Source: Streptomyces sp. NBC_00691
GTDB taxonomy: Bacteria; Actinomycetota; Actinomycetes; Streptomycetales; Streptomycetaceae
Direction: 5' to 3'
Assembly: GCF_036226665.1 (NCBI RefSeq)
Contig: NZ_CP109007.1
Location: 4,814,501 to 4,878,500, forward strand
DNA: 64,000 nt
The notes under the pieces: model-generated
The model's input: the letters and a program-made list of their open reading frames with translations, nothing else
Databases searched by the model: none
What the model was told of the DNA's origin: nothing
Translations under genes and position numbers: made by a program
Shown: positions 8,766 through 29,146 of the stretch, piece by piece
How the letters are laid out: each line of letters starts with the position of its first letter
Position numbering within the stretch: position 1 is the first letter of the stretch

Positions 8766-9719
8766 GGCCTGGGCGCGGCCGCGGGCGTAGATCTGGTTGA
8801 AGGCGAAGGTGCCGAGGTCGTCGCTGGCCTGGAAGATCGGCTTGTCGGCCTTGGTGACCTTCTTGCCGTTGGCGAAGCCGGCCTGGGTGAAGTAGGCGTA
8901 GCGCCCGACCGAGTTCGAGCGGCGCAGACAGACCGTGGCGTGGCAGAAGTCACGTACGCCCGCGCCGACGAGCGGGGCGATGCCGCCGGTGGCCTGGCTC
9001 TTCGCCTTCAGGGCCGCGGCCTCCGAGGGGAAGACGGCGACGCCGACGGTGATCGCCATGCCGTCCTTCACATAGGTGGCGCGGAGCACCCGCTGGCAGC
9101 CGTTCTTCTTGAGGACGGCGCCGAGGCCGCCCTGGGTGACGGCCGCGCAGTCGGTCGTCGCCGAGGTCGCGCCCTTGGTGTACGGGCGCTTGTTCATCGT
9201 CAGCTTCCTGCCCGGGAAGAGGCCCTCCGCGGAGAGCGGGGCCTTGTCCTTCTTCGGGTCCGAGATGTAGTCCTTCGGGTTCGGCGGGGGCGGCGGCGCC
9301 ACCGAGGAGAAGGTCGGCTCGGGGGTCGGCGTCGCGGTGGAGGAGACCGTGCCGGTGGGCACCCCGCCGTTCTTGGCCTCGTCGTTCTTCTTGCCGGAGG
9401 CCACCACGGCGGTGGCGACGATCGCGCCGACGACCAGCGCGGCCACCGCGCCGCCGCCGATGATCAGCCAGCGCTTGCGGCGGTTACGGGAGGCCGAGGC
9501 GTCGGCCAGGGCGCCCCAGTCGGGGGTCGGCCCGCCGCCCTGGGCGCCCGGGAAGGGGTCGGGCGCCTGCCCCTGGCCAGGCTGCTGCCCGTACCCGTGC
9601 TGTCCGTATCCCTGGGGCTGTCCGTAGCCCTGCCCGTACCCCTGCTGCGGCTGCTGCCCGTGCCCCTGCTGCCCGCCCTGCTGCGGCTCTTGCGGCCACT
9701 GCGGTCCCCCAAAGCTCAT
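8736..9719 (-). CDS. Gln/Gly-rich single-pass membrane protein of unknown function
   Basis: The 327-aa product is not recognised by function. Residues 1-65 are low complexity, rich in Gln, Gly, Pro and Tyr ([10 protein letters not shown]-type repeats). A basic stretch (RNRRKR) and one transmembrane segment ([24 protein letters not shown], about 85-107) follow, then a Thr/Pro-rich stalk and an extracellular domain of about 190 residues with four cysteines (DCAAV, NGCQR, FCHATVC) that could form two disulfides. A cytosolic Q/G/P-rich tail with an external sensor-like domain is a frequent layout of actinobacterial surface proteins. The start at 9719 has AGGA upstream; a slightly earlier ATG is possible. 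Confidence 0.8.
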
Positions 9720-14203: not shown

Positions 14204-15163
14204 TCAGCTTCCCTTCCGGGCCCCGGGCGTGCGGCGCCAGCGGCCGCGCTGGGTGCGCCAGAGGAGCTTCTGCGCGTAGAGGGTCAGGATCCCGGCCAGC
14301 ATGATGCCGAAGAGGTTCAGCAGGAGCTGCTCGGTCGAGCCCCACATCTGGCCGAACTCGCCGTAGCTGAGGGCGACGGCCGCGTTCGCGCCCGCCGGGA
14401 CCGTCGTCACCGAGATCGCCACGCCCACCAGGGCGCCGGACTTCGCCGAGGTCAGCGAGAGCGTGCCCGCGATGCCCGCGAGCAGCGCCACGACGAACGA
14501 GAACGGGTCCGGCTGCCAGATGAAACTGGTGTTGGGCCGGGGCGCGTCCAGCCGGTCCCGGCTGAACAGGTCGAGCGCGTCCATGCCCAGGCTGAACACC
14601 GTCGTCGCCACGATCGCCACCGCGAAGCCGACGAGCAGCGCGAGCAGCGAGCGCGCCGCGAGCTTCGGGGCGCGCCGCACCACCGCCGTACTGACGCCGG
14701 CGAGGGGGCCGAACTCCGGGCCGACCGCCATCGCGCCCACGATCAGGACCGCGTTGTCCAGGACGACACCGCAGGCCGCGATCATCGTCGCCAGGATCAT
14801 GAACGCGCTGTACGTGATGGAGAGCGTCGACTCCTCGTGGGTCGCGCCCGTCAGCTGCTCCCAGATCACCGCGTCCGCCGGCTCGCCCGGGGCCTCCTCC
14901 TCGGCGCGGTCCGCGCGCGTGGAGAGGGAGAGGTCGATGTTCTCGACGGCGATCGAGCCGTCCTGATCGATCCTCAGGCCGCGCAGCTCCTTGAGGAGTT
15001 CATCGCCCGCCTCACGGGCGACGTCGCACATGACGACGTCGCCGGAGGGCTCCCGGGCGGCGCCGGGCAGCACCACGACGTGCGTGGTGCCGACCGTGGA
15101 CTCGATCACCTCGACAGCGGCCCGGGTGCGGTCGGGCGGAACGATCATCCGGAGATGCAGCAT
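14204..15163 (-). CDS. DUF389 family membrane protein
   Basis: Integral membrane protein of 319 aa. Residues 1-85 form a soluble ferredoxin-like domain (MLHLRMIVPPDRTRAAVEVIESTVG). Five to six transmembrane segments follow, including SAFMILATMIAACGVVLDNAVLIVGAMAVGPEFGPL and FVVALLAGIAGTLSLTSAKSGALVGVAISVTTVPAGANA. This matches DUF389 proteins (TIGR00341-like), whose transport or channel role is unproven. The start lies 2 nt behind the coaA stop, so the two genes should be one transcription unit; why a permease-like protein travels with pantothenate kinase is unclear. Confidence 0.85.
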   Translation of the reverse strand: MLHLRMIVPPDRTRAAVEVIESTVGTTHVVVLPGAAREPSGDVVMCDVAREAGDELLKELRGLRIDQDGSIAVENIDLSLSTRADRAEEEAPGEPADAVIWEQLTGATHEESTLSITYSAFMILATMIAACGVVLDNAVLIVGAMAVGPEFGPLAGVSTAVVRRAPKLAARSLLALLVGFAVAIVATTVFSLGMDALDLFSRDRLDAPRPNTSFIWQPDPFSFVVALLAGIAGTLSLTSAKSGALVGVAISVTTVPAGANAAVALSYGEFGQMWGSTEQLLLNLFGIMLAGILTLYAQKLLWRTQRGRWRRTPGARKGS

Positions 15164-15165
15164 CC

Positions 15166-16134
15166 TCAGAGCTTACGGAGGCTCAGCCGCTGCACCTTGT
15201 GGTCCTGGCCCTTGCGGACGACGAGAGTCGCCCGGCCACGCGTCGGGGCCACGTTCTCCAGGAGGTTCACCTTGTTGATGGTCCGCCACATCGTGCGCGC
15301 GTAGTCGAGGGCCTCGTCCTCGGAGACCCGGGTGTACCGCTGGAAGTACGAGTCGGGGTCCTGGAAGGCGGTGTCGCGCAGCTTGCGGAACCGGTTGAGG
15401 TACCAGCGCTCGATGTCCTCCGGGCGCGCGTCCACGTACACCGAGAAGTCGAAGTAGTCGGCGAGGCCGACGCGGGTGCGGCCGTCCTTGCCGGGCAGGG
15501 CCGGCTGGAGGACGTTCAGGCCCTCGACGATGAGGATGTCCGGGCGGCGGACGACGAGGCGCTCGCCGGGGACGCGGTCGTAGATGAGGTGCGAGTAGAC
15601 CGGGGCGGTCACCTCGTCCTTGCCCGCCTTGATGTCCGCGACGAAGCGGGTCAGGGCCCGGCGGTCGTACGACTCGGGGAAACCCTTCCGGGACATGAGG
15701 CCGCGGGCCTTCAGCTCCTCCATCGGGTAGAGGAAGGCGTCCGTGGTGACCAGCTCCACGCGCGGGTGCTCCGGCCAGCGGGCGAGCAGGGCCTGGAGGA
15801 GACGGGACACCGTCGACTTCCCGACGGCGACCGAACCGGCGACCCCTATGACGAAGGGTGTGCCGCGCTGCTCGGCGCTCTCGCCGAGGAAGGTGTTGAG
15901 GGCGCCGCGCAGTCCGCTGGTGGCCTGCACGTACAGGTTGAGCAGCCGGGACAGGGGGAGGTAGATGTCCCGTACCTCGTCGAGGTCGATGACGTCCCCG
16001 AAACCGCGGAGCCGCTCGACCTCGTCGGCGGTGAGAGGGAGCGGAGTCTTGTCGCGCAGGGCGCTCCACTCGGCGCGGGTGAGGTCGACGTAGGGCGTCG
16101 TGCCGTTGGCGCTTCGTGGCGGCGAAGAGATCAC
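15166..16134 (-). CDS. coaA: Type I pantothenate kinase
   Basis: Phosphorylates pantothenate, the first committed step of coenzyme A synthesis. The P-loop [21 protein letters not shown] and the segments [32 protein letters not shown] and [12 protein letters not shown] are typical of CoaA, and the length (322 aa) is close to E. coli CoaA (316). The chosen GTG (16134) gives [23 protein letters not shown]; a longer frame upstream has a Pro/His-rich, non-conserved N-terminus. It is cotranscribed with the DUF389 gene. Confidence 0.95.
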
Positions 16135-16217
16135 GCTGCCATTGTCCCGGGTCGGGGGGTGGTGTGGGGGGTGGGGTGGGTCACGTGGCGTTCCGAGAGC
16201 CGCGCCATGGGATGCAT

Positions 16218-16248
16218 GTGCCCCCCGCCGGAGACCGGCGAGGGGCAC
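16218..16248 (-). terminator. Hairpin after the immunity gene
   Basis: GTGCCCC-CCGCCGG and CCGGCG-AGGGGCAC make a 13-14-bp stem with a 3-nt loop just beyond the stop of the minus-strand DUF5959-like gene. It probably ends the toxin-immunity transcript. Confidence 0.75.
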
Positions 16249-16258
16249 ACGCGGAGCT

Positions 16259-16663
16259 CTAGCTTGGACCTGGCGAGCCTTGGATGAACTGCCGAAGACG
16301 TTCTCGGTGGTCGTTGATCCAATCGCCTTCCAGGGCGATCGGGACGCGCACGGTGACCATGGAAATGGACTCGTCCTCCACGAGAATGTCCGGGCAACCG
16401 CGATCGCCGTCGAGCTCGATGGTCATGGTCGGTCCGTTGTTGTCTGACATCCAGGTAATGTCTCGGCCCTCAGTCAATGAGTCGAGTGCCTGTGCCCATG
16501 CTTCCAGTTTCGAACTGTGGAGAACGAGCAGAGTTGTTCCCGTGACGAAGAGGCTGGTGATTCTGATCTCAGCCTCCCACATTCCGCTCTCCATGGGTTC
16601 GAGCACGGTGACTTTAACTTCGTTCTCTTCATCCGTCAATTGGATGAGATCGAAAGGGAGCAT
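16259..16663 (-). CDS. Probable immunity protein for the RHS toxin (DUF5959-like)
   Basis: A 134-aa acidic soluble protein beginning [20 protein letters not shown]. The opening D-x-I-x-L, the TSLFVTG-like strand and the [16 protein letters not shown] segment recall DUF5959 proteins of Streptomyces; this family assignment is from memory. It has no signal peptide, so it would act in the cytosol. It lies 13 nt downstream of the RHS toxin stop, on the same strand, the standard place for a polymorphic-toxin immunity gene. Its GC is low for this genome (one 60-base stretch counted at 53%), like the adjoining nuclease tip. The immunity role is inferred from position. Confidence 0.7.
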
Positions 16664-16676
16664 GGATGTCAGTCTT

Positions 16677-19600
16677 TCAGTCGATGAGGAATTGGGCGGC
16701 CGTTGACCAGCCGTTGTCGTCGAATGCGCTGATGTCCAATCTGAACGGGACGTTCGAGCCCGGCAGGTAGCGGGGAATTGCCTGGTATAGGACGGTGTTT
16801 CCTTCTGCTACGTGGCTTCGGATTGAGTCCTGAAATGCTTCGATGGCGCCGTTATCGGTCTTGGTTTTCGTTCGCACGAGGTTCGATGGAGTGAGTCCGT
16901 CACCCCCCATCGATCTGGGGAGAAGATGGCCCCTGGTGTGACCAGGCGAGTTCTTTACGAAACCTGGCGGTAGAATTCTGCGGCCGGGACGGGTTCCCTT
17001 ACCGTGGCCCGGTTCCACTATGGCAGTCACGCCGGTTCGTCGTCCGTCAGGCAGCACTGTGCCATAGTCGGCGTCAACGCCTTGACAGTTGTGAACGAGA
17101 ACCGGAGCCGGGCCCGCCAGTACGTAGTACGTGTGGAAGTCCGCGACCGTCAGGTTGCGGACGTTCGCCGGCTGGGTCCAGGCCTGGACCGCGGTGATCT
17201 GGACGTGGGTGCCGGCGCTCGTGCGGAGCCACTGGCCCGGCTTCAGGTCCTTCGCGTCGATCCACTTGCGGAGCGACGGGACCCAGAACGGGTGGCCGTC
17301 CGTGGCCGTGATCGGGGCCGTCTTCGTGCCCTTGGCGCCGTCGATGTCGATCGTGACGCGGACGAGGTGCTTCTCGCCCTTTCCGATGATCGTCGCGGCG
17401 ACGTTCTTTCCGGTGGTCTCGCCGGTCTTCTCGTCCGTCGCGAGGACCTTGTCGCCCGGCTTCAGGTCCTTGATCGGCTTCGTGGAACCGTCGGCGAGGA
17501 GGACCTTCGTCTCCGGGGTGAAGCTGTTTCTGATGGGGCAGGAACCGGCGTCACCTCCTCCGCCGTCGGCTTTCTTCGCCGCGTCCGCCGCCGCCTCGTC
17601 GGCCTTTTTCGCCGCCGCCTTCGCCGCGTCCGCTTCCTTCTTCCAGTCGGCCATGTCCTCGGCGTACTTCGCCATGGCCGCGGCCTCGTCGTCCGCCCGC
17701 CTCAGGAGTCCGGTGGCCCAGCGGACCTCGTCGCTCCAGCGGTTGTACATCTTCCACGCGGTCTTGAGCGCCTTGAGGGTGCGTTTGGCCTTTGCCGCGA
17801 AGGGCATTGCGGCGTCCAGCGCGAGCGCCCCGCAGGCCCAGACATCGCCGCCGAGGCAGGCCTGGATGTCGTCGAATCCGCTGATGCCCTTGGCGACCTC
17901 CCACGCGATCTCGAGGATCACGTCCGCCTTGGACTTCTGCCGGATGTTCGACGCCTTCTTGACGTCGTCCTCGCTGACGGTCGTCGTCGGCTTCGTCGGC
18001 GGCGGTGCCACATATCCGGGAGCGTCGTTGCCGTCGCGTCCGCCGCCACTGCCGACCTGGGAGGGCGACTTGCCTTCGGTCTGGATCTTCCTCGTGCACT
18101 TCTCGTCGATGCAGAACGCCTCGCCCGACGGATCCGCGAAGGTGACCGGGCTGTTGTTCCCGTAGGTGTACGGGTTCATCGTCTGCGATTCGGCGATGTC
18201 CATCTTCGGGTCGACCGAGATGAACCGGCCCAGCGTCGGGTCGTACTCGCGTGCGCCCAGGTGGGTGAGGCCCGTCGACGCGTCCTTTGAACCGCCGAGG
18301 TAGCCCTTGTCATCCGGCCACATCGACGGGGCCGTGCCGCGGTCCTCGCCGTACGGGGTGAGTTTGCGGCGCGTCACCGCCTTCGTCGCCGCGTCGACCG
18401 AGGTCGTCGCGGTGCCGTTGCGGTCGGCGAGCAGGTACGACTTCTTGATCGTGCCGCCCTGGGCGACCTTGACCATGACCGGGCCGGCGGGGTGGGCGTA
18501 GTACCGGGTCGTCTTGGCGACCGCGCCCGCGGTGTCGAGCTGGAGCTCGGTGCCGGGCAGGTACAGCGTCGTGCCGCTCGGGTCGCGCTTGATGAGCCGG
18601 TTGCCGCCCGCGTCGTAGACGTAGGAGGTCTCCTGGCTGCCGGCGGTCACCTTCTCGAGGTGGCCCTCCACGTCCCACAGCAGGCTCTTCGTGTCGCCCT
18701 GGACCGTCCGCGACGTGGTGTTGCCTGCGTCGTCGTAGCCGAAGGTCTCCTCACGCGCGCCCTGCGGGCCCGTCGTGTCGACCTTCGCCAGCCGGCTCTT
18801 CGTGGGCAGTCCGGTCGCGTAGGTGTACGCGCGCTGGACGTTCTTCGTGGTGTCGCCGAGCGGGTCGTGCTTCGTCTCGCTGAGGCGGTTGCCGACGGCG
18901 TCGAAGGTGTACGAGTGCCAGTAGGCGTCCGGGCCGCCGACCTTCGGCGCCGTGCCGGGGCCGGACGCGCCGGGCTTGAGCGCGCAGGCGTCGCTTCCCG
19001 TCCAGGCGTCCGTCATGCGGCGGAGGTGGTCGTAGGCGAAGCACTGGACGTCGGTGGTGGCCGGCGTCGGGTTGTCGCCTGTCGTCTCCGTGATCCGCTG
19101 GATGTTGCCGACGGCGTCGTAGTCGGTCACCACGTCGTTGAGCGTGACCGTGTCGACGGTGCCGACTTCCTGGTGGTTCGTCGTGCGGGTGACCCGGCGG
19201 GTCTGCTCGTCGAACACGTTGCTGGTGATCAGCGCCTTGCCGGCCGAGTCGACCCGGGTGCGCACCACGTCACCGAGCGAGGTGTACTCGGTCGCCGCGA
19301 CGAAGGTGCTGGTCCCGACCGCCATGGTGGAGACGGCGTCGAGCGCGTTGTACCCGACCGACACCGTTTCCGTGGGGAGCCCGCCGACCGCGGGATGCGT
19401 CGTGGACTCCGGCAGGCCGGTGCGCGAGCTGTACGTGTTGGTGTACTTGTACGTGCCGGCGAGCTTGCCCTCGGCGGCCGGGATCGTCACCGTGGTGCTC
19501 TTGGGCCGGTACTCGGCGTCGTACGCGGTGACGGCCTGGGTGTAGGCGTTCGTGCCCGTGTCCGTGGTGACGTAGCGGGTCGAGGAGGCCGGGAGGCCCA

Positions 19601-22600
19601 GGGCGCCCGGAACCGTGTCGTAGGTCTGCGACGTCAGCATCGGCCCGGCGAGCGAGCCCTCGTGCGTGGCGGTGACACGGCCCAGCGCGTCGTACGCCAT
19701 CGCGATGGTCCGGGCGGGCGTCCGCCCGTCCGTCAGGGAGACGACGCGGTCACCCTTGTCGTACGCGAGGGAGGTCGTGCCCTTGTCGGGGTCGGAGGTC
19801 GACTTCACGCGGCCGCGGAGGTCGTAGGTCTGCGACCACTTGTTGCCGGCCTGGTCGGTGACCGTGTCCAGCTGTCCCTTGCGGGTGTACGAGTAGCTGA
19901 TCTTGTCGTAGGCGCCGGAGGGGCCGCTGCCCTTGTACTGCCGCAGCTCGGTCTTCCGGCCCTGCGCGTCGAGGAGCGCCATCGTCGGCGTCTCGCCGGC
20001 CGGCGGGTCGACCGCCGTCCAGTCACCGCCGTACGTGGTGCTCGTCCGCCAGGTCTCCAGGCCCTTGGACCGGGCGATGGTGTCGGTCGGCCGTCCGACG
20101 CCGTCGTACAGCGTCACCGTGGAGGCGGGAACGGTGTTGTCGGTGGGCGGGAACATCGTCGCGGTCGGGCCGCTGGCGCTGTTGTAGTAGCCGCCGTTCT
20201 CCTTCCAGACCCGCCCGAGGCTGTCGTAGAAGGTGTCCGTGACGACCCGGCCGCCGTTCATCGCCGGGTTCTGGGTCTGCCGCAGGCGCAGCGCGCCGTC
20301 GTAGAAGTCGTAGCTGACCCGGTAGGTGCCGTTCTCGAGGAGCCGCTTGTTGGTGATGACGACCGGGGCGTTCTGGCCGACGGTGTAGTCGAACTCCGCG
20401 TCCGGCGTGGTGGTGGTCGGGTTCCGGTCGGGGGACCAGACCTTCTTCATCCGGCCGAGGGCGTCGTACTCCATGACGGTCTTGCGGCCGTTGGTGTCGG
20501 TCTGCGAGAGCGGCAGGCCGCGGCCGGGGTCGACCTCGGTGGTGGCCGTGTGGCCGAGGGTGTTCGTCGTGACGGTCTTGGTCACGACCGAGCCGGCGGC
20601 GGGTGTGTAGGCCGTCGACGTGGTCTTGCCGTAGACGTCGGTCGCGGAGGTGATGCGGCCATACCCGTCGAAGGTCGAGGTGCCCGACAGGGTGTACTGC
20701 GGGACGTCGTCGACGTAGCCGGAGAGCGACTCGCTCTTCACGACGTTGCCGACGGCGTCGTACGCGACCTTGGCGTCGGAGACGACGTCGGCGGGGCGTG
20801 CGGGCGTGGCGTCGCACGCCTTGGCGACCGTCTCCACGCGGGTCTGCTGGGACTTGAACCACTTGGCGGTGTCGTCGAGGTACTCGAACCGCGTGCACTG
20901 GTCGTCGCCCGCGTCGGTGGTGTCGCCCTTGGTCCAGGTCCAGGTGACGCGACCGCTGTCGTCGTAGCCGTGCTCGACGGCGGTGCGGCGTTCGCCGCGG
21001 CCGCCCGACAGGATCGTGCGGGAGGAGGTGGACTTCTGGCCCTGGACCCAGGCCTCCATGGGCGCGGCGCCGGTGGCGGAGCGGTTCCGTGTGGCGACCG
21101 GGCCGTGCAGCCACGGGGTGTTGATCGTCGCGGAGTGCAGGGAACCCGAGACGCCGTCGAAGTACTGGGTCTCCCGGACCTGGCCGGCGAGCATCGGGTG
21201 GTCGTCGACGGAGGTGTTCTCGGAGTCCGTCACCTGGACCGAGCGGCGGGTGCCGTCGGCCTTGAGGTCGCCGTCGAGGCCCCGGTAGAAGAGGCTCTCC
21301 GTGCGGGTGCGCACGTCGGGCAGGACGCCGTTGAGGACGCGGACCCTGGAGTAGCCGCGGTACACCGACCAGGTGCGGGCGGGCTTGTTCGTCAGCTCGC
21401 TCGCGTCGTCGTACGCCCAGGCGGGCGTGCCGATGTACTCGTAGTTGGCCTCGCGGGTCGGCGAGGTGCCGTTCTTGTCCTCTTCCCGGACCTGGTCGAC
21501 GCGGTGCTTGTGGAACCAGTCGGTGGAGTAGACCTTCTTGAGACCCGTCGGATCCGTCGGGTCGTTGGTCTCGTTGACGACGGGGTAGCAGCGCAGGGTG
21601 TTGCTGTCCGGTGCGGACGGCAGCTTGACGGAGCCCGGGACGGTGGAGCACTCCGTGGGCGCGTACACGACGACCGTGCGCGCACCCGTCTCGGTCTGCA
21701 CCTGCTGGACGCGCCAGCGCAGGTACGGCGGGTTTCCGTCGGTGTTGTTGTCGACGCGGTTGGGCAGCTGGATGCCCGTGAAGGTCACGGCGGGCAGGCT
21801 GATGGCCGTGCCGTTCTGCCCGGTGCGCTGGATGCTCTTCAGCCAGAGCGGGTACTCGCCGTTGACGGAGCCGTCACCCGTGGACTGGAAGTCCTGGTCC
21901 AGGGTCCAGGTGTCGACCGGGGTCGGGACACCGTTCTTGAGGACCTTGGTGGTGATGCTCCTCAGCAGCTTGCGGGTGAAGAACGCGGGCGAGTAGCGGT
22001 CCGTACAGGTCTCGCCGGAGGCGCAGAGCTGGTCGGCGGGTACGTCCGGCCAGTTCCTCGCGACCTCGGTCGAGGACTTCGAGGTGAGCTTGGACTCGGC
22101 GCAGTCGAAGGTCTGCGTGACGACGCAGCGCTCGCGGGCGTCGTAGGCCACCTCGGCGGGTGCCGCCGCGAAGAGGTCGTCGGAACGGAGGCCGTACGCG
22201 GCCCGCTTGAGCCAGCTGCCGCGGTCGTAGGCGCGGGCGGTCGACGTGCCGGTGGAGGTGACGTTGGAGCCGTAGTAGTTGGACTCCTTGCCGTACCAGT
22301 ACGTCAGGGCGTTGCCGCGCGGGTCGACGACGTAGTCGAGGTTCCAGCGGTAGGTCTGGTCACAGACCGAGGCGGCGTAGCCGGTGGCGTGGCAGGGCTC
22401 TCCCTCGTGGTTGCCGTAGACGGGCACGTTGAGGGCCGAGTTGGTCTCGGGCTTTCCGGCCGCCCAGCCGGGGAGGTGGTTGAGGCCGAAGTGGTACTTG
22501 ACGCCCTCGGAGTTGGTGACGACCCAGTACTCGCCCTCCTTGTCGCCGTTCGTGGCGCCCGTCTCCAGTTCGACCTTGGAGCCGTCCTGGTTGGCGGGGT

Positions 22601-23819
22601 ACCACTTCTTGTCGGCGTCGTTGAGTACGAGCGCGGTGGAGGACCCGTTCAGGGAGAGGGTGACCATCGGAGGGCCGTGACAGAGGTCGCCCGTCGGGTG
22701 GGTCGTCGGGTTGTTGAACCCGCTGTCCTTCGCACGGTCCTCGGCACAGGCCACGTAGGTGCGCTCGATGAAGCTGGATCCGGTGTCCCAGCCGTCGCCG
22801 ACCCAGGACGGCTGCTGCGAGGTCGCGAGGGTGCGGCCGTCGATGCTGCCCGAGTTGTAGCCGATGGAGAGGGCCGGACCGGGGCCGCCGAGGGAGGAGG
22901 GGATCTCCATCGGGTAGGTCCAGGAGAAGTCACCCGTGGAACCGCCCGCCGACCAGGTGCCGGTGGGGCTGAGCGAGGTCGCCTTGTAGGTGCCCTTGGA
23001 GCCGGAGGCGCTCGCGGTGGCGGCGAGGACCATGGCCCCGGAGCCGGCCGCGGCGGAGCGTGCGGCGTAGGTGCCGGTCAGCGTGCCCGTCGCGGTGTCG
23101 TTGACGGTCGGCACGGGGACGGACGCCTGGCACTCCGGCTTCTGCGGCGTCGTCAGTGCGCAGCCGGGCATCGCGCTGAAGCGCAGGCGGGAGCCCCAGT
23201 CGCCGCCGTAGGCGTGGGCGAAGGCGCGGTAGTCCAGTTCGACGGAGACAGGGTTGGTGCCCTTGCCCTTGTCGGTGCGCTGGACGGAGAGGAGCAGGCC
23301 GCGGATTCCGGCCTTGCGGGCCGCCTCCTCGGTGTGGACGGAGACCTTCGCCGTGACGGCGGGGGCGTCGGCGGCGGGGGCGGTGGCGCCCTTGGCCGCG
23401 GCCGGGTTGCCGGCCGCGAGCCGGACCGGGAGCGATCCCGCGCGGGCCGAGGGGCCGACGGGGGCGGCCTTGTCCTGCTGGCCCGTGGCGACGCGCAGCG
23501 CGGACCGGGCGGTCCGGTCCGCCGCCGGGACGGTGGTCTCGGCGGTGGCCGGGGCCGGCCACTTCACGCCGGGGGCCGTCTTGAGGGCCGCGGCGCTGCT
23601 CTGGTCCTGCGGAGCGCGGGGCGGCTTGGTGGTCCCCCGCGCCGCCGGGACGTCGGTGACCTTCTGGAGTTCGGGGAGGCCCTTCCCTCCTGTGGTCTGC
23701 GCGGCCACGGGGGACAGGGACGCCCCTGAGGCCAGGAGGGCCAGGGCGAGTGCGGAAATTCCGGATCGCCATGTCCGTGACGTATGTCTGAAATGTTTTT
23801 TTGCATGCCGAAGTGGCAC
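16677..23819 (-). CDS. Secreted RHS/YD-repeat polymorphic toxin with HINT and nuclease tip
   Basis: A 2380-aa contact- or diffusion-type toxin. In order: basic n-region and Sec signal (SGISALALALLASGASLSPVAAQ, to about residue 42); an Ala/Pro-rich region; a SpvB-like N-part; many YD repeats (YDALGRM, YDAVGNIQ, YDAGGNRL); an RHS core ending GAREYDPTLGRFISVDP to TYGNNSPVTFADPSG (about 1800-1900); a pretoxin segment with DIQACLGGDVWACGALALDAA and an Ala/Lys/Asp coiled coil; a HINT domain (about 2091-2245) ending in VLVHNC; and a tip of about 135 residues with GHTRGHLLPRSMGGDG-x-TPSNLV. The RGH and Asn match DNA/RNA non-specific endonucleases (Endonuclea_NS_2 type), so the tip is probably a nuclease released by HINT cleavage. 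Start chosen at GTG 23819 (GGGTGGGGA upstream); GTG 23831 is possible. Confidence 0.88.
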   Translation of the reverse strand: MPLRHAKKHFRHTSRTWRSGISALALALLASGASLSPVAAQTTGGKGLPELQKVTDVPAARGTTKPPRAPQDQSSAAALKTAPGVKWPAPATAETTVPAADRTARSALRVATGQQDKAAPVGPSARAGSLPVRLAAGNPAAAKGATAPAADAPAVTAKVSVHTEEAARKAGIRGLLLSVQRTDKGKGTNPVSVELDYRAFAHAYGGDWGSRLRFSAMPGCALTTPQKPECQASVPVPTVNDTATGTLTGTYAARSAAAGSGAMVLAATASASGSKGTYKATSLSPTGTWSAGGSTGDFSWTYPMEIPSSLGGPGPALSIGYNSGSIDGRTLATSQQPSWVGDGWDTGSSFIERTYVACAEDRAKDSGFNNPTTHPTGDLCHGPPMVTLSLNGSSTALVLNDADKKWYPANQDGSKVELETGATNGDKEGEYWVVTNSEGVKYHFGLNHLPGWAAGKPETNSALNVPVYGNHEGEPCHATGYAASVCDQTYRWNLDYVVDPRGNALTYWYGKESNYYGSNVTSTGTSTARAYDRGSWLKRAAYGLRSDDLFAAAPAEVAYDARERCVVTQTFDCAESKLTSKSSTEVARNWPDVPADQLCASGETCTDRYSPAFFTRKLLRSITTKVLKNGVPTPVDTWTLDQDFQSTGDGSVNGEYPLWLKSIQRTGQNGTAISLPAVTFTGIQLPNRVDNNTDGNPPYLRWRVQQVQTETGARTVVVYAPTECSTVPGSVKLPSAPDSNTLRCYPVVNETNDPTDPTGLKKVYSTDWFHKHRVDQVREEDKNGTSPTREANYEYIGTPAWAYDDASELTNKPARTWSVYRGYSRVRVLNGVLPDVRTRTESLFYRGLDGDLKADGTRRSVQVTDSENTSVDDHPMLAGQVRETQYFDGVSGSLHSATINTPWLHGPVATRNRSATGAAPMEAWVQGQKSTSSRTILSGGRGERRTAVEHGYDDSGRVTWTWTKGDTTDAGDDQCTRFEYLDDTAKWFKSQQTRVETVAKACDATPARPADVVSDAKVAYDAVGNVVKSESLSGYVDDVPQYTLSGTSTFDGYGRITSATDVYGKTTSTAYTPAAGSVVTKTVTTNTLGHTATTEVDPGRGLPLSQTDTNGRKTVMEYDALGRMKKVWSPDRNPTTTTPDAEFDYTVGQNAPVVITNKRLLENGTYRVSYDFYDGALRLRQTQNPAMNGGRVVTDTFYDSLGRVWKENGGYYNSASGPTATMFPPTDNTVPASTVTLYDGVGRPTDTIARSKGLETWRTSTTYGGDWTAVDPPAGETPTMALLDAQGRKTELRQYKGSGPSGAYDKISYSYTRKGQLDTVTDQAGNKWSQTYDLRGRVKSTSDPDKGTTSLAYDKGDRVVSLTDGRTPARTIAMAYDALGRVTATHEGSLAGPMLTSQTYDTVPGALGLPASSTRYVTTDTGTNAYTQAVTAYDAEYRPKSTTVTIPAAEGKLAGTYKYTNTYSSRTGLPESTTHPAVGGLPTETVSVGYNALDAVSTMAVGTSTFVAATEYTSLGDVVRTRVDSAGKALITSNVFDEQTRRVTRTTNHQEVGTVDTVTLNDVVTDYDAVGNIQRITETTGDNPTPATTDVQCFAYDHLRRMTDAWTGSDACALKPGASGPGTAPKVGGPDAYWHSYTFDAVGNRLSETKHDPLGDTTKNVQRAYTYATGLPTKSRLAKVDTTGPQGAREETFGYDDAGNTTSRTVQGDTKSLLWDVEGHLEKVTAGSQETSYVYDAGGNRLIKRDPSGTTLYLPGTELQLDTAGAVAKTTRYYAHPAGPVMVKVAQGGTIKKSYLLADRNGTATTSVDAATKAVTRRKLTPYGEDRGTAPSMWPDDKGYLGGSKDASTGLTHLGAREYDPTLGRFISVDPKMDIAESQTMNPYTYGNNSPVTFADPSGEAFCIDEKCTRKIQTEGKSPSQVGSGGGRDGNDAPGYVAPPPTKPTTTVSEDDVKKASNIRQKSKADVILEIAWEVAKGISGFDDIQACLGGDVWACGALALDAAMPFAAKAKRTLKALKTAWKMYNRWSDEVRWATGLLRRADDEAAAMAKYAEDMADWKKEADAAKAAAKKADEAAADAAKKADGGGGDAGSCPIRNSFTPETKVLLADGSTKPIKDLKPGDKVLATDEKTGETTGKNVAATIIGKGEKHLVRVTIDIDGAKGTKTAPITATDGHPFWVPSLRKWIDAKDLKPGQWLRTSAGTHVQITAVQAWTQPANVRNLTVADFHTYYVLAGPAPVLVHNCQGVDADYGTVLPDGRRTGVTAIVEPGHGKGTRPGRRILPPGFVKNSPGHTRGHLLPRSMGGDGLTPSNLVRTKTKTDNGAIEAFQDSIRSHVAEGNTVLYQAIPRYLPGSNVPFRLDISAFDDNGWSTAAQFLID

Positions 23820-23862
23820 GTTGATCCCCACCCCTAATTCGTTGATCGAACGATTGGGGCGC

Positions 23863-23892
23863 AGGTTATGTGCGGCAGAGAACGGCAAACAA
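23863..23892 (-). promoter_or_regulatory. Candidate promoter of the RHS toxin gene
   Basis: Read on the minus strand: TTGTTT, 18-bp spacer, TAACCT, fitting the TTGNNN/TANNNT vegetative pattern. The transcript would start near 23856, giving a leader of about 37 nt to the GTG at 23819. The TGTGCG cluster overlaps it. Confidence 0.45.
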
Positions 23893-23930
23893 GGAGTATC
23901 TGTGCGCAGCCTATGTGCGGCCTGTGCGCA
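23867..23930. repeat. Cluster of TGTGCG motifs over the RHS promoter
   Basis: TATGTGCGGC occurs twice (23867-23876 and 23912-23921) and CTGTGCGCA twice (23900-23908 and 23922-23930), so TGTGCG appears four times in 64 bases. The copies overlap and flank the -10/-35 candidate of the toxin gene. Spacing is irregular (33, 11 and 10 bp). They may be binding sites of an unknown regulator. Confidence 0.5.
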
Positions 23931-24211
23931 AAAAGGGAGTGTCACGGCTATTTGCGTACACGTCGCGGGCAAGATCACTTGGAATATGTCAGGTCGTCCG
24001 AGATGCCATGGCCCGATGTCGGAGGCGCCTGCTACAAAGCAGCCTGAACCACTCCGTTCGGCCTCTGGGTGATCGCGCAAGGGGGACGCTTCCACCGGAT
24101 GACAGGGGAAGGCCGCGCCGTCCTGGGGGAACGGAATTAACCATCGAGAATGGGGACGGAACCCACTTCATGTCAGTTTTCAGATCGAGAACTTCCGACC
24201 CCGGGGGGGTC

Positions 24212-27200
24212 ATGAGGAGAGGGCTCTCGGCAGTCGTCGTCGCGACGATGTCCGCAGGGCTCCTTTCCGCGGCACCGACCGGGAGCGCCACCGCGGCGAC
24301 ACCGGCGAGCGAGAACGCTCCCGCCTCCACGCAGGCGGAGCGGGAGACCCGGGCGACGGCGCAGGCCCTCAAGGAGGCCAAGCGCACCGGCGACCCCGTG
24401 GAGATCGCGTCCCGGCGCACCGAGACCGACGAGGTGTACATCAACCCCGACGGCACGGTCCGTGTCGACCGGGCGATCCTCCCGGTCCGGGTCCGCCAGG
24501 GCGGCAAGCTCGTCGACATCGACCCCGTGCTCGCGCAGCGCTCCGACGGCCGCGTCGCCCCCAAGGCGTCGGCGATGTCCGTCACCTTCTCCGGCGGCGG
24601 CGACGACGTCTTCGCGACCATGCTCCGCGAGGGCCGCACCGTCACCCTCACCTGGCCGCACGGCAAGCTGCCCAAGCCCACGGTGAGCGGCCGGACCGCC
24701 ACCTACGCGAACGTGCTGCCGGGCGTCGACCTCACCGCCACCGCGGACGACGTCTCCTTCTCGCACGCCCTGGTCGTCAAGACGCCGGCGGCCGCGAAGA
24801 ACAAGGCCGTCAGGTCCGTCGACTTCGGCGTGAAGACGAAGGGGCTCCAGCTCGCCTCGGACGCCACGGGCGGGATAGCCGCCAGGACCCCCTCGCTCAA
24901 CTCCGTGTTCTCCGCTCCGCAGCCGCAGATGTGGGACTCCGCCGGCACCGAGGCGGCGACCCCGGTCGACACGAAGACCCCCAAGAGCGCCCGGCCGGCC
25001 GCCCGGTCCCTCCAGGACACCCTCGACGGCGCCACCGAAGGCAGCCGGACGGCCAAGCTGGGCGTGAAGCTCGGAGCGGGCAGGATCACCCTCACTCCCG
25101 ACACCGCGCTCCTCGACGACCCCAAGACCGTGTTCCCGGTCGTCATCGACCCGACGTGGATGCCGGTCGCCTGGAAGAACGCCTGGTCGATCGCGTACAA
25201 GCACACCGCGGTCTCCAACTCCGAGAACACCGTCTACTACAACGGCGGCACCATCTCGGACTCCGCGCGTGTCGGTTACGCCAACGACACGACCAGGGGC
25301 GGCACCGTCCGCGCCAACACGTACTTCAACATCCCCGTCGCGAACCTCTGGAACAAGGACGTCATCGAGTCGACGCTCCGCATCCAGCAGACGCACGCCG
25401 GCTCCTGGTCCTGCAAGTCCGGTGACGTACTCGTGCGGACGATCGGCAAGAGCCTGCCGAAGAACATCACCTACAACAACCAGCCCGCCTGGGGCGCGAT
25501 CGTCGACTACTCCGGCAAGTCGTTCGGCGGGCGCAACTGCCCGTCGGACACCGCCGGCCTCGTGGAGTTCGACGTCACGGACGCGATCACCGACGCCGCC
25601 GCCTCCGGCTGGGGCAACTGGGCGTTCGTCCTGACCTCGAAGTCCAACGCCATCGACACCTCGTGGCGCAAGTTCGACCCCAGCTCGGCGCGGGTCTCCA
25701 CCAGGTACAACACCGACCCGGGCCGGCCGAAGACGTCGATCGACCCGTCGCTCCCGTGCGCGGGCGGTGTCATCGGCACGACCGACGAGATCGTCCTGAA
25801 GGCCACCGGCCTCAGGGACGACGAGGACACCAACCTGACGGTCGAGTTCCGGTACGCGCTGAACGGCGCCAAGACCTCCACGCCCAGGCCCGTCGCCGCC
25901 ACCAGGGGCGGCACCGCCATGCTGCGCATCGTGGCGGGAACGACCCTCCCGGCCGGCACGTACTGGTACGACGCCATCGTCAAGGACGGCACGGGCAGCG
26001 GCGACTGGGCCGGCCGCTGCTACTTCACGTACGACTGGAAGCCGCCGAAGTACGCGCCGAAGGTCACCTCGTACCAGTTCCCCGAGCACACCCTGACGAC
26101 CAAGCCCCCGGCGTGCGTCGGCGGTGTGGCCACCGGCGCGTGCAACATGCCGGCGCGGACGGACGGCACCTTCGTCTTCTCGATGGACTCCCGTGAGCCC
26201 GTCAAGGACGTCGTCGAGTACGTCTACTGGACGGACTTCGACACCAAGGAGAGGCCGGTGAAGCCCGCCGCCGCGGGCGGCTCGGTCAGCATCAAGGTCA
26301 AGCCGCTGAACGCCGGCCCCCAGTACCTGTACGTACGCGGCGAGGACACGGCCAACAACCGCTCCCCGGTGAAGTCGTACATGCTTCTGCCCACCCGCTC
26401 CGCGTCGCGCGACCGGCTGGGCGACCTGAACGGCGACACCATGGTCGACCTGGTCACCGTGGACCCCGGAACGGGAACCCTCTGGACGTACCCGGGCCGT
26501 GGTGACGGCACGTTCGGTGCGGGCGTGGCGGCCGACGACGCCTCCTTCGCCGCAGGTCCGGTGACGAACGGCGGCAGCTGGGACGACGTCGACTACTACG
26601 AGGACATCCTCGTCCTGCAGCCCGCGCCCGACAAGGCGGGCGTGTCCGAACTCTGGGCCTACCGGGGCGACGGCAGCGGCAGGCTGGCGGCCGCCAAGCC
26701 CGACGAGGACGCGAGCCGTCGTCTGAAGACCATCGACGAGGACGAGACCAACTGGGACGGATCCTCGGCGTCGGAGAACGCCCACTGGCGGACCGGAGCC
26801 GAGATCCTCTCCATCCCCAGCGTCAACGACGACGACGAGAACGGCGCGATCGACGACGGGGACAACCCCGATCTGCTGGTCAAGGAAGGCGCCTCGCTCT
26901 GGCTCTACCTGGGCAGCCGCGGTGGCAACATCCTCGGGGCCCCGATCGCCCTCGGCAACGCCGACTGGCAGGACATGACCGTCATGACCCCCGGTGACCT
27001 CGACAAGGACGGCCTGCCGGAGATCTGGGCCCGGGACAAGGTCAAGGGCACCGTCCACGAGTACCGGAGCAGGAAGCCGGCGACGCCCGACCCGAGCGGC
27101 GTCGCCATCGACCTCGCACTGTTCAGCGACGCGACGGTCCGGTCGACCTCCATCGACACCGGCTTCACCGGCACCGCCTACCCGCACCTCGCCACCACCG

Positions 27201-29146
27201 GAGACTTCGAGAACGACGGCCGCGCCGACCTCTGGTCGCGCAACGGAGCGGGCCGCACCGTCGAGTTCCCGGGCCGAGCGGCCACCGAGGCGGACCCCAC
27301 CGCCTTCGGAGCGGAGCGCTACGTGGCCACCACCGGGTACGACTGGGCGGACTGCGAGACCTTCCCCGCCGCGTCGGGCACCGGAACCTTCCCCGTGTGC
27401 GGACCGATCCTCGGCAAGTACAAGGCGCTCGGAGGCCCGGCCGGCTACGGCAAGCCCACGAGCGGTGTCACCAACGTCAGCGACGGCGGCCGGTTCGTCA
27501 ACTTCGCCCAGGTCGGCACGTCGGCCACCGACCGGACCATCTCCTGGAGCAAGTCGACCGGCGCCTGGGCCGTCTCCAACGGCGTCTTCAGCAAGTGGAA
27601 CAGCACCGGGCGTGAGACCGGTGTCCTCGGCTACCCGACCTCGGACGAGCGGCTGACGCACGTCCTGGGCGGTTCGGTCATCACCTTCAGCAAGGCGGGC
27701 AAGGCCGGAGCCGTCTACTGGCGGGACGGCATCGGATCGCAGATGATCCGCGGCGCCGTCTACAGCCAGTACCTGGCGCTCGGCGGCGTCGCCGTGTTCG
27801 GCTACCCCACGGGTGACGAGACGGCGACGGCGACCAAGCCGGGATCGGTTCAGCACTTCCGCCAGGGGACCTCCGCGACGGACAACGTCTCCTTCTACTG
27901 GAGCAGCGCGACCGGCGCCTGGCCGGTGTTCGGAGCCATCCGCACCCACTGGCTGAGCCAGGGCGGTCACAACGGAACCCTCGGGTTCCCGAAGTCCACC
28001 GAGAAGTCGGTGTACGGCGGCCGGCGCACGGACTTCCAGAACGGCTACATCCGCTGGAACCGGGAGAGCTACCAGGTCGCCTCGCACGCCTGGACGGACC
28101 GGACCGCGCACCTGCGGACGGACCTGGGGGGTGACTACGACGGCGACGGCAAGACCGACGTCTTCACCGTCTACGACTACGAGAAGGACAGCATCGGTCT
28201 GTACGTCGCCAAGGCCAACAGCGACGGCGGGCACAACCCGCCGCTGGAGTACTCCTCCGAGGACCCGGGCGACTGGAACAACAGCCACAGCAAGTGGGCC
28301 GCCGGCGACTTCGACGGCGACGGCCGGGACGACCTCATGGGCTTCTACGGGTACTCGGACGGCCACGTCACCGCGTTCTCGTTCCTGAGCCAGGCGGCGG
28401 GCACGCCGATCCACCGCAGCAGCATCAACCTCGCCACGGGCTGGGACTGGAACCGGAGCACGCCGATGGCCGGCGACTTCAACGGTGACGGCCGCGACGA
28501 CCTCGCCTTCGTCTACGACTACGGCGACGGCGTCATGGGCGTCCACACGGCCCTGGCGCGTGCCGACGGCACCTTCGCCAAACCGGTCCTCTCGTACAAG
28601 ACGGCGCCGGGCTACTGGTACGCGGCGAGCGCCAGTTACACCGTCGGGGACACGAACGGTGACGGCCGCGACGACCTCGTCGGCTTCTACGGCTACGCCT
28701 CGGGAGAGGCGCGGCTCTTCACCTTCACGGCGAAGGCCGACGGCACCCTCGCCTACCACGTGGGCTCGTGGAACGTGCCCGCCGGAACCTGGGAGCGTTC
28801 GCGGGTCAAGATGACCATGGCCGACTTCGACAAGGACGGCCGCGAGGACCTCGCGGTGATGTACGGGTACGACGACGGCCGGACCGAGATCCGGATCTTC
28901 CACGCCCGTGCCGACGGAGGCTTCGACACCTTCGTCACCCCGTACAAGAGCGAGCCCGGCGACTGGTACGCCACGAGCACGGGGAACCTCGTCGCGGGCG
29001 ACGTGAACGGCGACGCGCGCCCCGACATCACCGTGTCGTACAACTACGGGGACGGAAAGACGAGGGTGTTCACCTTCTACGGCAACGAATCGGGAACCGT
29101 CGACTGGCCCACGCGCAAGTGGTACGCGGACGCCGGAACCTGGTGA
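24212..29146 (+). CDS. Giant secreted multi-domain protein (DNRLRE, FG-GAP/VCBS, LGFP)
   Basis: A 1644-aa extracellular protein of unknown function. A signal peptide (MRRGLSAVVVATMSAGLLSAAPTGSATA) leads into a region of about 270 residues, then a DNRLRE-like beta domain (about 309-500, FPVVIDPTWMPVAW to SSARVSTRYN). A first FG-GAP/VCBS block follows (about 737-1025, GDLNGDTMVDLVTVDPGTG), then three LGFP-type repeats (about 1063-1283, VLGYPTSDE, VFGYPTGDE, TLGFPKSTE) and six C-terminal D-G-D-G-x-x-D repeats (1307-1644). The DxDxDG loops should bind calcium; LGFP repeats are associated with cell-wall binding. An ATG at 24170 would add 14 residues. It is divergent from the RHS toxin, so it may be a surface partner or adhesin. 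Confidence 0.85.
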   Translation: MRRGLSAVVVATMSAGLLSAAPTGSATAATPASENAPASTQAERETRATAQALKEAKRTGDPVEIASRRTETDEVYINPDGTVRVDRAILPVRVRQGGKLVDIDPVLAQRSDGRVAPKASAMSVTFSGGGDDVFATMLREGRTVTLTWPHGKLPKPTVSGRTATYANVLPGVDLTATADDVSFSHALVVKTPAAAKNKAVRSVDFGVKTKGLQLASDATGGIAARTPSLNSVFSAPQPQMWDSAGTEAATPVDTKTPKSARPAARSLQDTLDGATEGSRTAKLGVKLGAGRITLTPDTALLDDPKTVFPVVIDPTWMPVAWKNAWSIAYKHTAVSNSENTVYYNGGTISDSARVGYANDTTRGGTVRANTYFNIPVANLWNKDVIESTLRIQQTHAGSWSCKSGDVLVRTIGKSLPKNITYNNQPAWGAIVDYSGKSFGGRNCPSDTAGLVEFDVTDAITDAAASGWGNWAFVLTSKSNAIDTSWRKFDPSSARVSTRYNTDPGRPKTSIDPSLPCAGGVIGTTDEIVLKATGLRDDEDTNLTVEFRYALNGAKTSTPRPVAATRGGTAMLRIVAGTTLPAGTYWYDAIVKDGTGSGDWAGRCYFTYDWKPPKYAPKVTSYQFPEHTLTTKPPACVGGVATGACNMPARTDGTFVFSMDSREPVKDVVEYVYWTDFDTKERPVKPAAAGGSVSIKVKPLNAGPQYLYVRGEDTANNRSPVKSYMLLPTRSASRDRLGDLNGDTMVDLVTVDPGTGTLWTYPGRGDGTFGAGVAADDASFAAGPVTNGGSWDDVDYYEDILVLQPAPDKAGVSELWAYRGDGSGRLAAAKPDEDASRRLKTIDEDETNWDGSSASENAHWRTGAEILSIPSVNDDDENGAIDDGDNPDLLVKEGASLWLYLGSRGGNILGAPIALGNADWQDMTVMTPGDLDKDGLPEIWARDKVKGTVHEYRSRKPATPDPSGVAIDLALFSDATVRSTSIDTGFTGTAYPHLATTGDFENDGRADLWSRNGAGRTVEFPGRAATEADPTAFGAERYVATTGYDWADCETFPAASGTGTFPVCGPILGKYKALGGPAGYGKPTSGVTNVSDGGRFVNFAQVGTSATDRTISWSKSTGAWAVSNGVFSKWNSTGRETGVLGYPTSDERLTHVLGGSVITFSKAGKAGAVYWRDGIGSQMIRGAVYSQYLALGGVAVFGYPTGDETATATKPGSVQHFRQGTSATDNVSFYWSSATGAWPVFGAIRTHWLSQGGHNGTLGFPKSTEKSVYGGRRTDFQNGYIRWNRESYQVASHAWTDRTAHLRTDLGGDYDGDGKTDVFTVYDYEKDSIGLYVAKANSDGGHNPPLEYSSEDPGDWNNSHSKWAAGDFDGDGRDDLMGFYGYSDGHVTAFSFLSQAAGTPIHRSSINLATGWDWNRSTPMAGDFNGDGRDDLAFVYDYGDGVMGVHTALARADGTFAKPVLSYKTAPGYWYAASASYTVGDTNGDGRDDLVGFYGYASGEARLFTFTAKADGTLAYHVGSWNVPAGTWERSRVKMTMADFDKDGREDLAVMYGYDDGRTEIRIFHARADGGFDTFVTPYKSEPGDWYATSTGNLVAGDVNGDARPDITVSYNYGDGKTRVFTFYGNESGTVDWPTRKWYADAGTW

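What the first reader, a model, noticed from the sequence alone, without database searches (positions are those of the whole stretch)
16677..17085. RGH-motif nuclease as the toxin warhead with an unstudied immunity family
The last 135 residues contain GHTRGHLLPRSMGGDG and a following Asn, as in beta-beta-alpha-metal DNA/RNA non-specific endonucleases. The neighbouring DUF5959-like protein would be its inhibitor. If so, a large family of unknown-function Streptomyces proteins would gain a function.
Basis: partly seen in the sequence, partly recalled or inferred. Interest (0 to 1): 0.6.

Follow-up and report, generated by a model that had tools for sequence, protein, structure and literature searches.

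The report
Nuclease-tipped RHS toxin with DUF5959 immunity
This Streptomyces stretch encodes the DNA-cutting tip of a large secreted RHS weapon protein, and ten of ten related tips in different species sit beside a small DUF5959 gene that evolves in step with the tip, so DUF5959 is very probably the self-protection protein for this kind of tip, although most DUF5959 genes elsewhere stand alone.

Summary
The last 136 residues of a ~2,400-aa RHS/PT-HINT protein match Pfam Endonuclea_NS_2 above its cut-off, with R, H and N invariant in 27 related tips; a model of a related tip matches NucA, Sda1 and EsaD. The neighbour, 13 nt downstream, is DUF5959 (129 bits). All 10 distinct close relatives of the tip, in Streptomyces and Kitasatospora, have DUF5959 at the 3' side: five tandem, five tail-to-tail. 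None of 17 more distant Endonuclea_NS_2 tips does; five of their neighbours tested look like SUKH proteins. Tip and DUF5959 distances correlate (r = 0.92, 0 of 20,000 permutations) while tip and RHS body do not (r = -0.11), so the pair moves as a cassette. DUF5959 is predicted confidently (pLDDT 94) as two beta-beta-beta-beta-alpha units, PUR/Whirly-like, unlike the described EsaG fold. The wider claim is only partly supported: 67 of 77 DUF5959 proteins examined have no such toxin nearby, and a linked tip-DUF5959 model gave no confident interface. Toxicity and inhibition are untested. The toxin kind is known (EsaD, YeeF, Dickeya RhsA); the immunity family appears new (no paper in the library names DUF5959). 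New variant of a known kind.

The parts
16677..17087 (-). C-terminal toxin tip: Endonuclea_NS_2 / NucA-type beta-beta-alpha-metal nuclease (136 aa after the HINT His-Asn)
   Evidence: PF13930 31.1 bits over cut-off 27; profile matches to streptodornase D and a DNA-entry nuclease; R, H, N invariant in 27/27 tips; fold of the L142 homologue matches NucA, Sda1, EsaD
17088..17546 (-). Pretoxin HINT domain expected to cut off the tip at ...VLVHN|C
   Evidence: PF07591 79.2 bits, residues 2201-2336; absent in L177, where the tip joins the RHS core directly
17547..23831 (-). RHS/YD-repeat body with a hydrophobic, signal-peptide-like N-terminus; likely start at GTG 23831 or 23819
   Evidence: Rhs_assc_core 64.5 bits and YD repeats; RHS_repeat; candidate starts listed; signal peptide judged by eye only
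16259..16663 (-). DUF5959 protein, 134 aa, proposed cognate immunity protein, 13 nt after the toxin stop
   Evidence: PF19384 129 bits; adjacent in 10/10 close tips; r = 0.92 with the tip; AF2 pLDDT 94

Best explanation
The locus is a polymorphic toxin-immunity pair. A large exported RHS protein carries, after a self-cleaving HINT domain, a metal-dependent NucA-type nuclease tip meant to cut nucleic acid in a competitor cell. The DUF5959 protein encoded right after it stays in the producer's cytosol, binds this particular tip clade and blocks it. Tip and DUF5959 travel together as a cassette swapped onto different RHS bodies. Shown: nuclease family membership, catalytic residues, constant linkage, co-evolution independent of the body, atypical base composition of the cassette. 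Inferred: nuclease activity and its target, processing by HINT, export, binding and inhibition by DUF5959. DUF5959 is strongly acidic (net -16 here), so covering the DNA-binding face or active site of the tip is the mode I consider most likely, but nothing here tests it.
For: Pfam PF13930 and PF19384 hits. 10 of 10 distinct close tips have DUF5959 as the 3' neighbour, 5 tandem and 5 convergent; roughly 1e-4 expected per tip from the DUF5959 density. 0 of 17 more distant tips has one; five of their neighbours tested look like SUKH proteins, three of them over a Pfam cut-off. Mantel r = 0.92, 0 of 20,000 permutations, n = 10; tip-body r = -0.11, n = 8. Cassette GC 56-59% and GC3 64-69% against 70% and 96% in the RHS body. 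Homologous tips EsaD and YeeF are neutralised by a small adjacent gene product (PMC9616950, PMC7033585). DUF5959 AF2 model pLDDT 94, with chain B of the CdiA-CT/CdiI complex 4ntq among the weaker structural matches, Z 5.9.
Against: 67 of 77 DUF5959 proteins in the tree are not beside this tip, so the family is not tied to it. In five loci the gene is convergent, unusual for immunity genes. A linked tip-DUF5959 model gave pTM 0.57 and no interface evidence, with an unpaired alignment of 53 rows. The best structural matches of DUF5959 are nucleic-acid-binding PUR/Whirly proteins at Z 7.1 or less, which the tool says may be only a common arrangement. No experiment.
Confidence: 0.85

Rival explanations
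1. DUF5959 is a general nucleic-acid-binding (PUR/Whirly-like) house protein of Streptomycetaceae that is carried in the cassette for another reason, for example protecting DNA or regulating the toxin gene, rather than binding the toxin.
For: Best fold matches are PUR-alpha, Whirly and MRP1/2 proteins, Z 6-7; most DUF5959 genes stand alone.
Against: Strong pairwise co-evolution with the tip and not with the RHS body, replacement by other proteins beside related tips and net charge -9 to -19 in toxin-linked copies fit a tip inhibitor better; an acidic protein is a poor nucleic-acid binder.
Confidence: 0.1
2. The pair is a real toxin-immunity cassette in other species but the window copy is inactive, for instance no longer expressed or exported.
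For: The RHS start is unclear (GTG or TTG candidates only), and the tip has the lowest PF13930 score of the four scanned.
Against: The reading frame is open from RHS to tip, the catalytic R, H, N residues are intact and the 13-nt coupling to DUF5959 is kept.
Confidence: 0.1
3. The adjacency is chance and DUF5959 has no relation to the tip.
For: Only that DUF5959 is common, in about a third of Streptomycetaceae genomes sampled.
Against: 10 of 10 close tips against 0 of 17 distant tips, in two arrangements, across two genera, and r = 0.92.
Confidence: 0.01

Closest known systems
Dickeya dadantii RhsA (RHS_repeat + Endonuclea_NS_2)
   Same: RHS body with a C-terminal Endonuclea_NS_2 DNase tip (PMC9990079)
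   Different: Gram-negative system listed with T6SS effectors; its immunity gene was not compared here
EsaD/EsaG of Staphylococcus aureus and YeeF/YezG of Bacillus subtilis
   Same: Endonuclea_NS_2 nuclease tip with a small adjacent inhibitor; the L142 tip model matches EsaD 8gun with 21% identity
   Different: T7SS-exported; EsaG is described as a four-stranded sheet between helices, related to BH3703 (PMC9616950), whereas DUF5959 is predicted as two beta-beta-beta-beta-alpha units
Tox-NucA class of Zhang et al. 2012 (PMC3482391)
   Same: GH/N nuclease tips of polymorphic toxins, RHS repeats included
   Different: Listed immunity partners are Imm36 (DUF600), Imm-SUKH and Imm-NTF2; DUF5959 is not among them
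CdiI of Enterobacter cloacae (complex 4ntq)
   Same: An immunity protein whose chain is among the structural matches of DUF5959, Z 5.9 over 101 residues; chain B taken to be CdiI from the entry title
   Different: Inhibits a different toxin, a 16S rRNA nuclease (PMC9086364); no sequence relation shown
SsgA-like sporulation proteins of Streptomyces (SsgB)
   Same: Similar alpha+beta arrangement, weak match Z 4.3
   Different: Profile comparison finds no relation, probability 0.3%

Membership tests
Endonuclea_NS_2 (PF13930) / Tox-NucA nuclease | Profile score above the curated cut-off | tested here: met
   31.1 bits against 27 for the isolated tip; 37-51 for three relatives
Endonuclea_NS_2 (PF13930) / Tox-NucA nuclease | Catalytic His (RGH) and conserved Asn residues | tested here: met
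   R, H and the NLV Asn invariant in 27/27 aligned tips; DNG Asn in 10/10 close tips
Endonuclea_NS_2 (PF13930) / Tox-NucA nuclease | Beta-beta-alpha-metal nuclease fold | tested here: met
   Model of the L142 tip matches NucA 4qh0 (E 8.9e-4), Sda1 5fgw and EsaD 8gun; the window tip itself was not folded
Endonuclea_NS_2 (PF13930) / Tox-NucA nuclease | Metal-dependent nuclease activity | not testable with these tools
   Needs an assay
Polymorphic RHS toxin system | RHS/YD body, processing domain, variable C-terminal toxin tip | tested here: met
   Rhs core, YD repeats, PT-HINT; same tip clade on bodies of 27-64% identity
Polymorphic RHS toxin system | Immunity gene candidate constantly next to the tip | tested here: met
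   DUF5959 adjacent in 10/10 close tips and co-evolving; neutralisation itself not tested
Polymorphic RHS toxin system | The neighbour neutralises the tip | not testable with these tools
   Needs co-expression; the linked model was not decisive
DUF5959 (PF19384) | Profile score above the curated cut-off | tested here: met
   129 bits against 26.5
Imm36/EsaG (DUF600) immunity family | DUF600 profile or EsaG-like fold | tested here: inconclusive
   No DUF600 hit among Pfam matches up to E = 1; EsaG not among the structural matches listed, which does not exclude it
PUR/Whirly fold | Two beta-beta-beta-beta-alpha units and a clear structural match | tested here: inconclusive
   Element order fits; Z up to 7.1, below the level the tool treats as clear

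The most novel reading that the evidence does not exclude
DUF5959 is as a whole a large, previously unrecognised Streptomycetaceae immunity family with a nucleic-acid-binding-like (PUR/Whirly) fold: the many stand-alone copies are orphan immunity genes that protect against the nuclease tips of neighbours, and at least two branches are paired with NucA-type tips in either orientation.
Probability: 0.3. Interest if true: 0.6.

Novelty: new variant of a known kind. Interest (0 to 1): 0.45.

Why it matters
It gives a family of unknown function, found in about a third of the Streptomycetaceae genomes sampled, a concrete and easily tested role in at least two of its branches, and adds a new kind of inhibitor to the known partners of NucA-type toxins. 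It also shows an immunity gene that can lie tail-to-tail with its toxin, which a search for same-strand downstream genes would miss.

Tried and rejected
A link of DUF5959 to the SsgA-like sporulation proteins of similar shape was tested by profile comparison and not found. A solved relative of DUF5959 by sequence was sought and not found; the best hit had E = 0.28. A general association of DUF5959 with toxins was tested: the 3'-side neighbours of the other DUF5959 genes show no toxin family among the commonest Pfam matches, though singletons were not listed, and tblastn finds no relative of this RHS body or tip around most of them (up to 9 kb upstream and 4 kb downstream fetched; L049 has a HINT-like stretch about 7 kb away). 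A complex was sought by folding the L142 tip and DUF5959 as one read-through chain with an unpaired alignment; both domains fold but pTM is 0.57 and no interface can be claimed. EsaG was not among the structural matches listed for DUF5959. No paper in the library names DUF5959 or PF19384. A tip-like fragment in S. lanatus (L146) covers only the last ~30 residues and was not counted.

Full report
Observation. The ORF 16677-24095 (-) reads as an RHS protein whose last 136 residues follow a pretoxin HINT domain ending ...VLVHN|C. The HINT domain scores 79.2 bits (PF07591), the RHS core 64.5 bits (TIGR03696). Scanned alone, the tip matches Endonuclea_NS_2 (PF13930) at 31.1 bits, cut-off 27. Three of its relatives score 37-51 bits. 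A four-row tip profile finds streptodornase D and a competence nuclease in the PDB, weakly (E 0.009-0.03). In 27 aligned tips the Arg and His of RGH and the Asn of NLV are invariant. The neighbour, 13 nt after the toxin stop, is DUF5959 (PF19384, 129 bits).

Linkage from the toxin side. A search of 395 Streptomycetaceae genomes and 393 Streptomyces genomes with the tip profile, plus the GTDB contigs, gives ten distinct close tips, counting duplicates once: the window; L141 = L072 (K. xanthocidica); L142 = G133 (S. sp. WAC06614); L148 = G277; L177 = G859; L143 = L040 (K. purpeofusca); L144 = L046 (K. aureofaciens); L145 = G801 (S. sp. MnatMP-M17); L147 = G275; L175 = G1002. All ten have DUF5959 as the gene at the 3' side. 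In five it follows on the same strand (window, L141, L142, L148, L177), with a gap of only 10-13 nt in the window, L141 and L148. In the other five it is convergent, with an inverted repeat such as GGGCAGAGCTT...AAGCTCTGCCC between the two stops in L143 and L147. Of 17 loci with more distant Endonuclea_NS_2 tips, none has DUF5959. Of their downstream neighbours, five tested resemble SUKH proteins, three of them above a Pfam cut-off; SUKH is a partner already listed for Tox-NucA by Zhang et al. 2012 (PMC3482391). One of these distant pairs lies in the window's own genome (L165).

Co-evolution. Distances between tips and between their DUF5959 partners correlate at r = 0.92 over ten pairs, reached by 0 of 20,000 permutations; for the eight with a long RHS body in hand, tip-body r is -0.11 and DUF5959-body r 0.05. 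Tips are 46-89% identical while RHS body segments are 27-64%, and in L177 the tip is attached directly after the RHS core without HINT. Tip and DUF5959 in the window have GC 59% and 56% (GC3 64% and 69%), against 70% (96%) in the RHS body and about 70% in the next genes. This is what a swapped toxin-immunity cassette looks like.

Linkage from the DUF5959 side. DUF5959 occurs in 71 of 200 Streptomycetaceae genomes but in only 9 of 396 genomes drawn from the phylum, seven of those of the window's own genus. Of the 80 loci fetched around it, only three carry this tip by tblastn, and G133:C457 adds a fourth. The remaining neighbours are diverse: transposases, transporters, AfsA, methyltransferases. 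Three annotated plasmid copies are also alone. In a tree of 77 DUF5959 proteins the ten toxin-linked ones need three changes of state and fall in two regions. So the toxin link is firm for those branches and unproven for the family; the stand-alone copies may be orphan immunity genes or may do something else.

Structure. DUF5959 of the window is predicted at pLDDT 94.2, pTM 0.89, as two beta-beta-beta-beta-alpha units. Its best structural matches are PUR-alpha, Whirly and MRP1/2 proteins, Z 6-7.1, with chain B of the E. cloacae CdiA-CT/CdiI complex at Z 5.9. These Z values can reflect only a common arrangement. The protein is acidic (net -16; toxin-linked copies -9 to -19, stand-alone mean -10.5), so acidity is a family trait and not special to the toxin-linked copies. 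EsaG, the inhibitor of the homologous EsaD, has a different described fold and works by pulling the nuclease apart (PMC9616950). A read-through chain of the L142 tip and its DUF5959 folds into two good domains but with pTM 0.57, so no interface can be claimed. The tip part matches NucA, Sda1 and EsaD.

Verdict. Very probably an RHS toxin with a NucA-type nuclease tip and DUF5959 as its immunity protein. The toxin kind is known (Dickeya RhsA, EsaD, YeeF; PMC9990079); the pairing with DUF5959 appears unreported in the library searched. Activity and inhibition remain to be shown at the bench.

Noticed in passing
window 14204-24095: The RHS/DUF5959 module lies in an otherwise core-looking region (ribosomal protein genes, a glmM-like gene, a pantothenate-kinase-like gene 15166-16134, groEL-like genes further on; names by eye); whether this spot is an insertion site in other Streptomyces was not checked.
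   Followed up: no
window 24248-29146 (+): A 1,632-aa protein with LGFP and FG-GAP repeats, divergent from the RHS gene; probably a cell-surface or secreted protein of unknown role.
   Followed up: partly
L165 (own genome, 7.81 Mb): A second large protein with a distant Endonuclea_NS_2-like tip in the same genome, followed by a SUKH-like gene just under the Pfam cut-offs.
   Followed up: partly
L143, L144, L145, L147, L175: DUF5959 genes lie tail-to-tail with the toxin gene instead of downstream on the same strand; searches for same-strand partners would miss them.
   Followed up: yes
L036 and L048, DUF5959 at 9000-9402 of the locus read in the direction of the gene: Stand-alone DUF5959 genes start 3 nt after a gene whose product resembles one two genes downstream of the L148 cassette (shared VRVFCGP motif), perhaps a shared insertion neighbourhood.
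   Followed up: no
L146:9809-10258: S. lanatus has only a fragment resembling the last ~30 residues of the tip and no DUF5959 nearby.
   Followed up: partly
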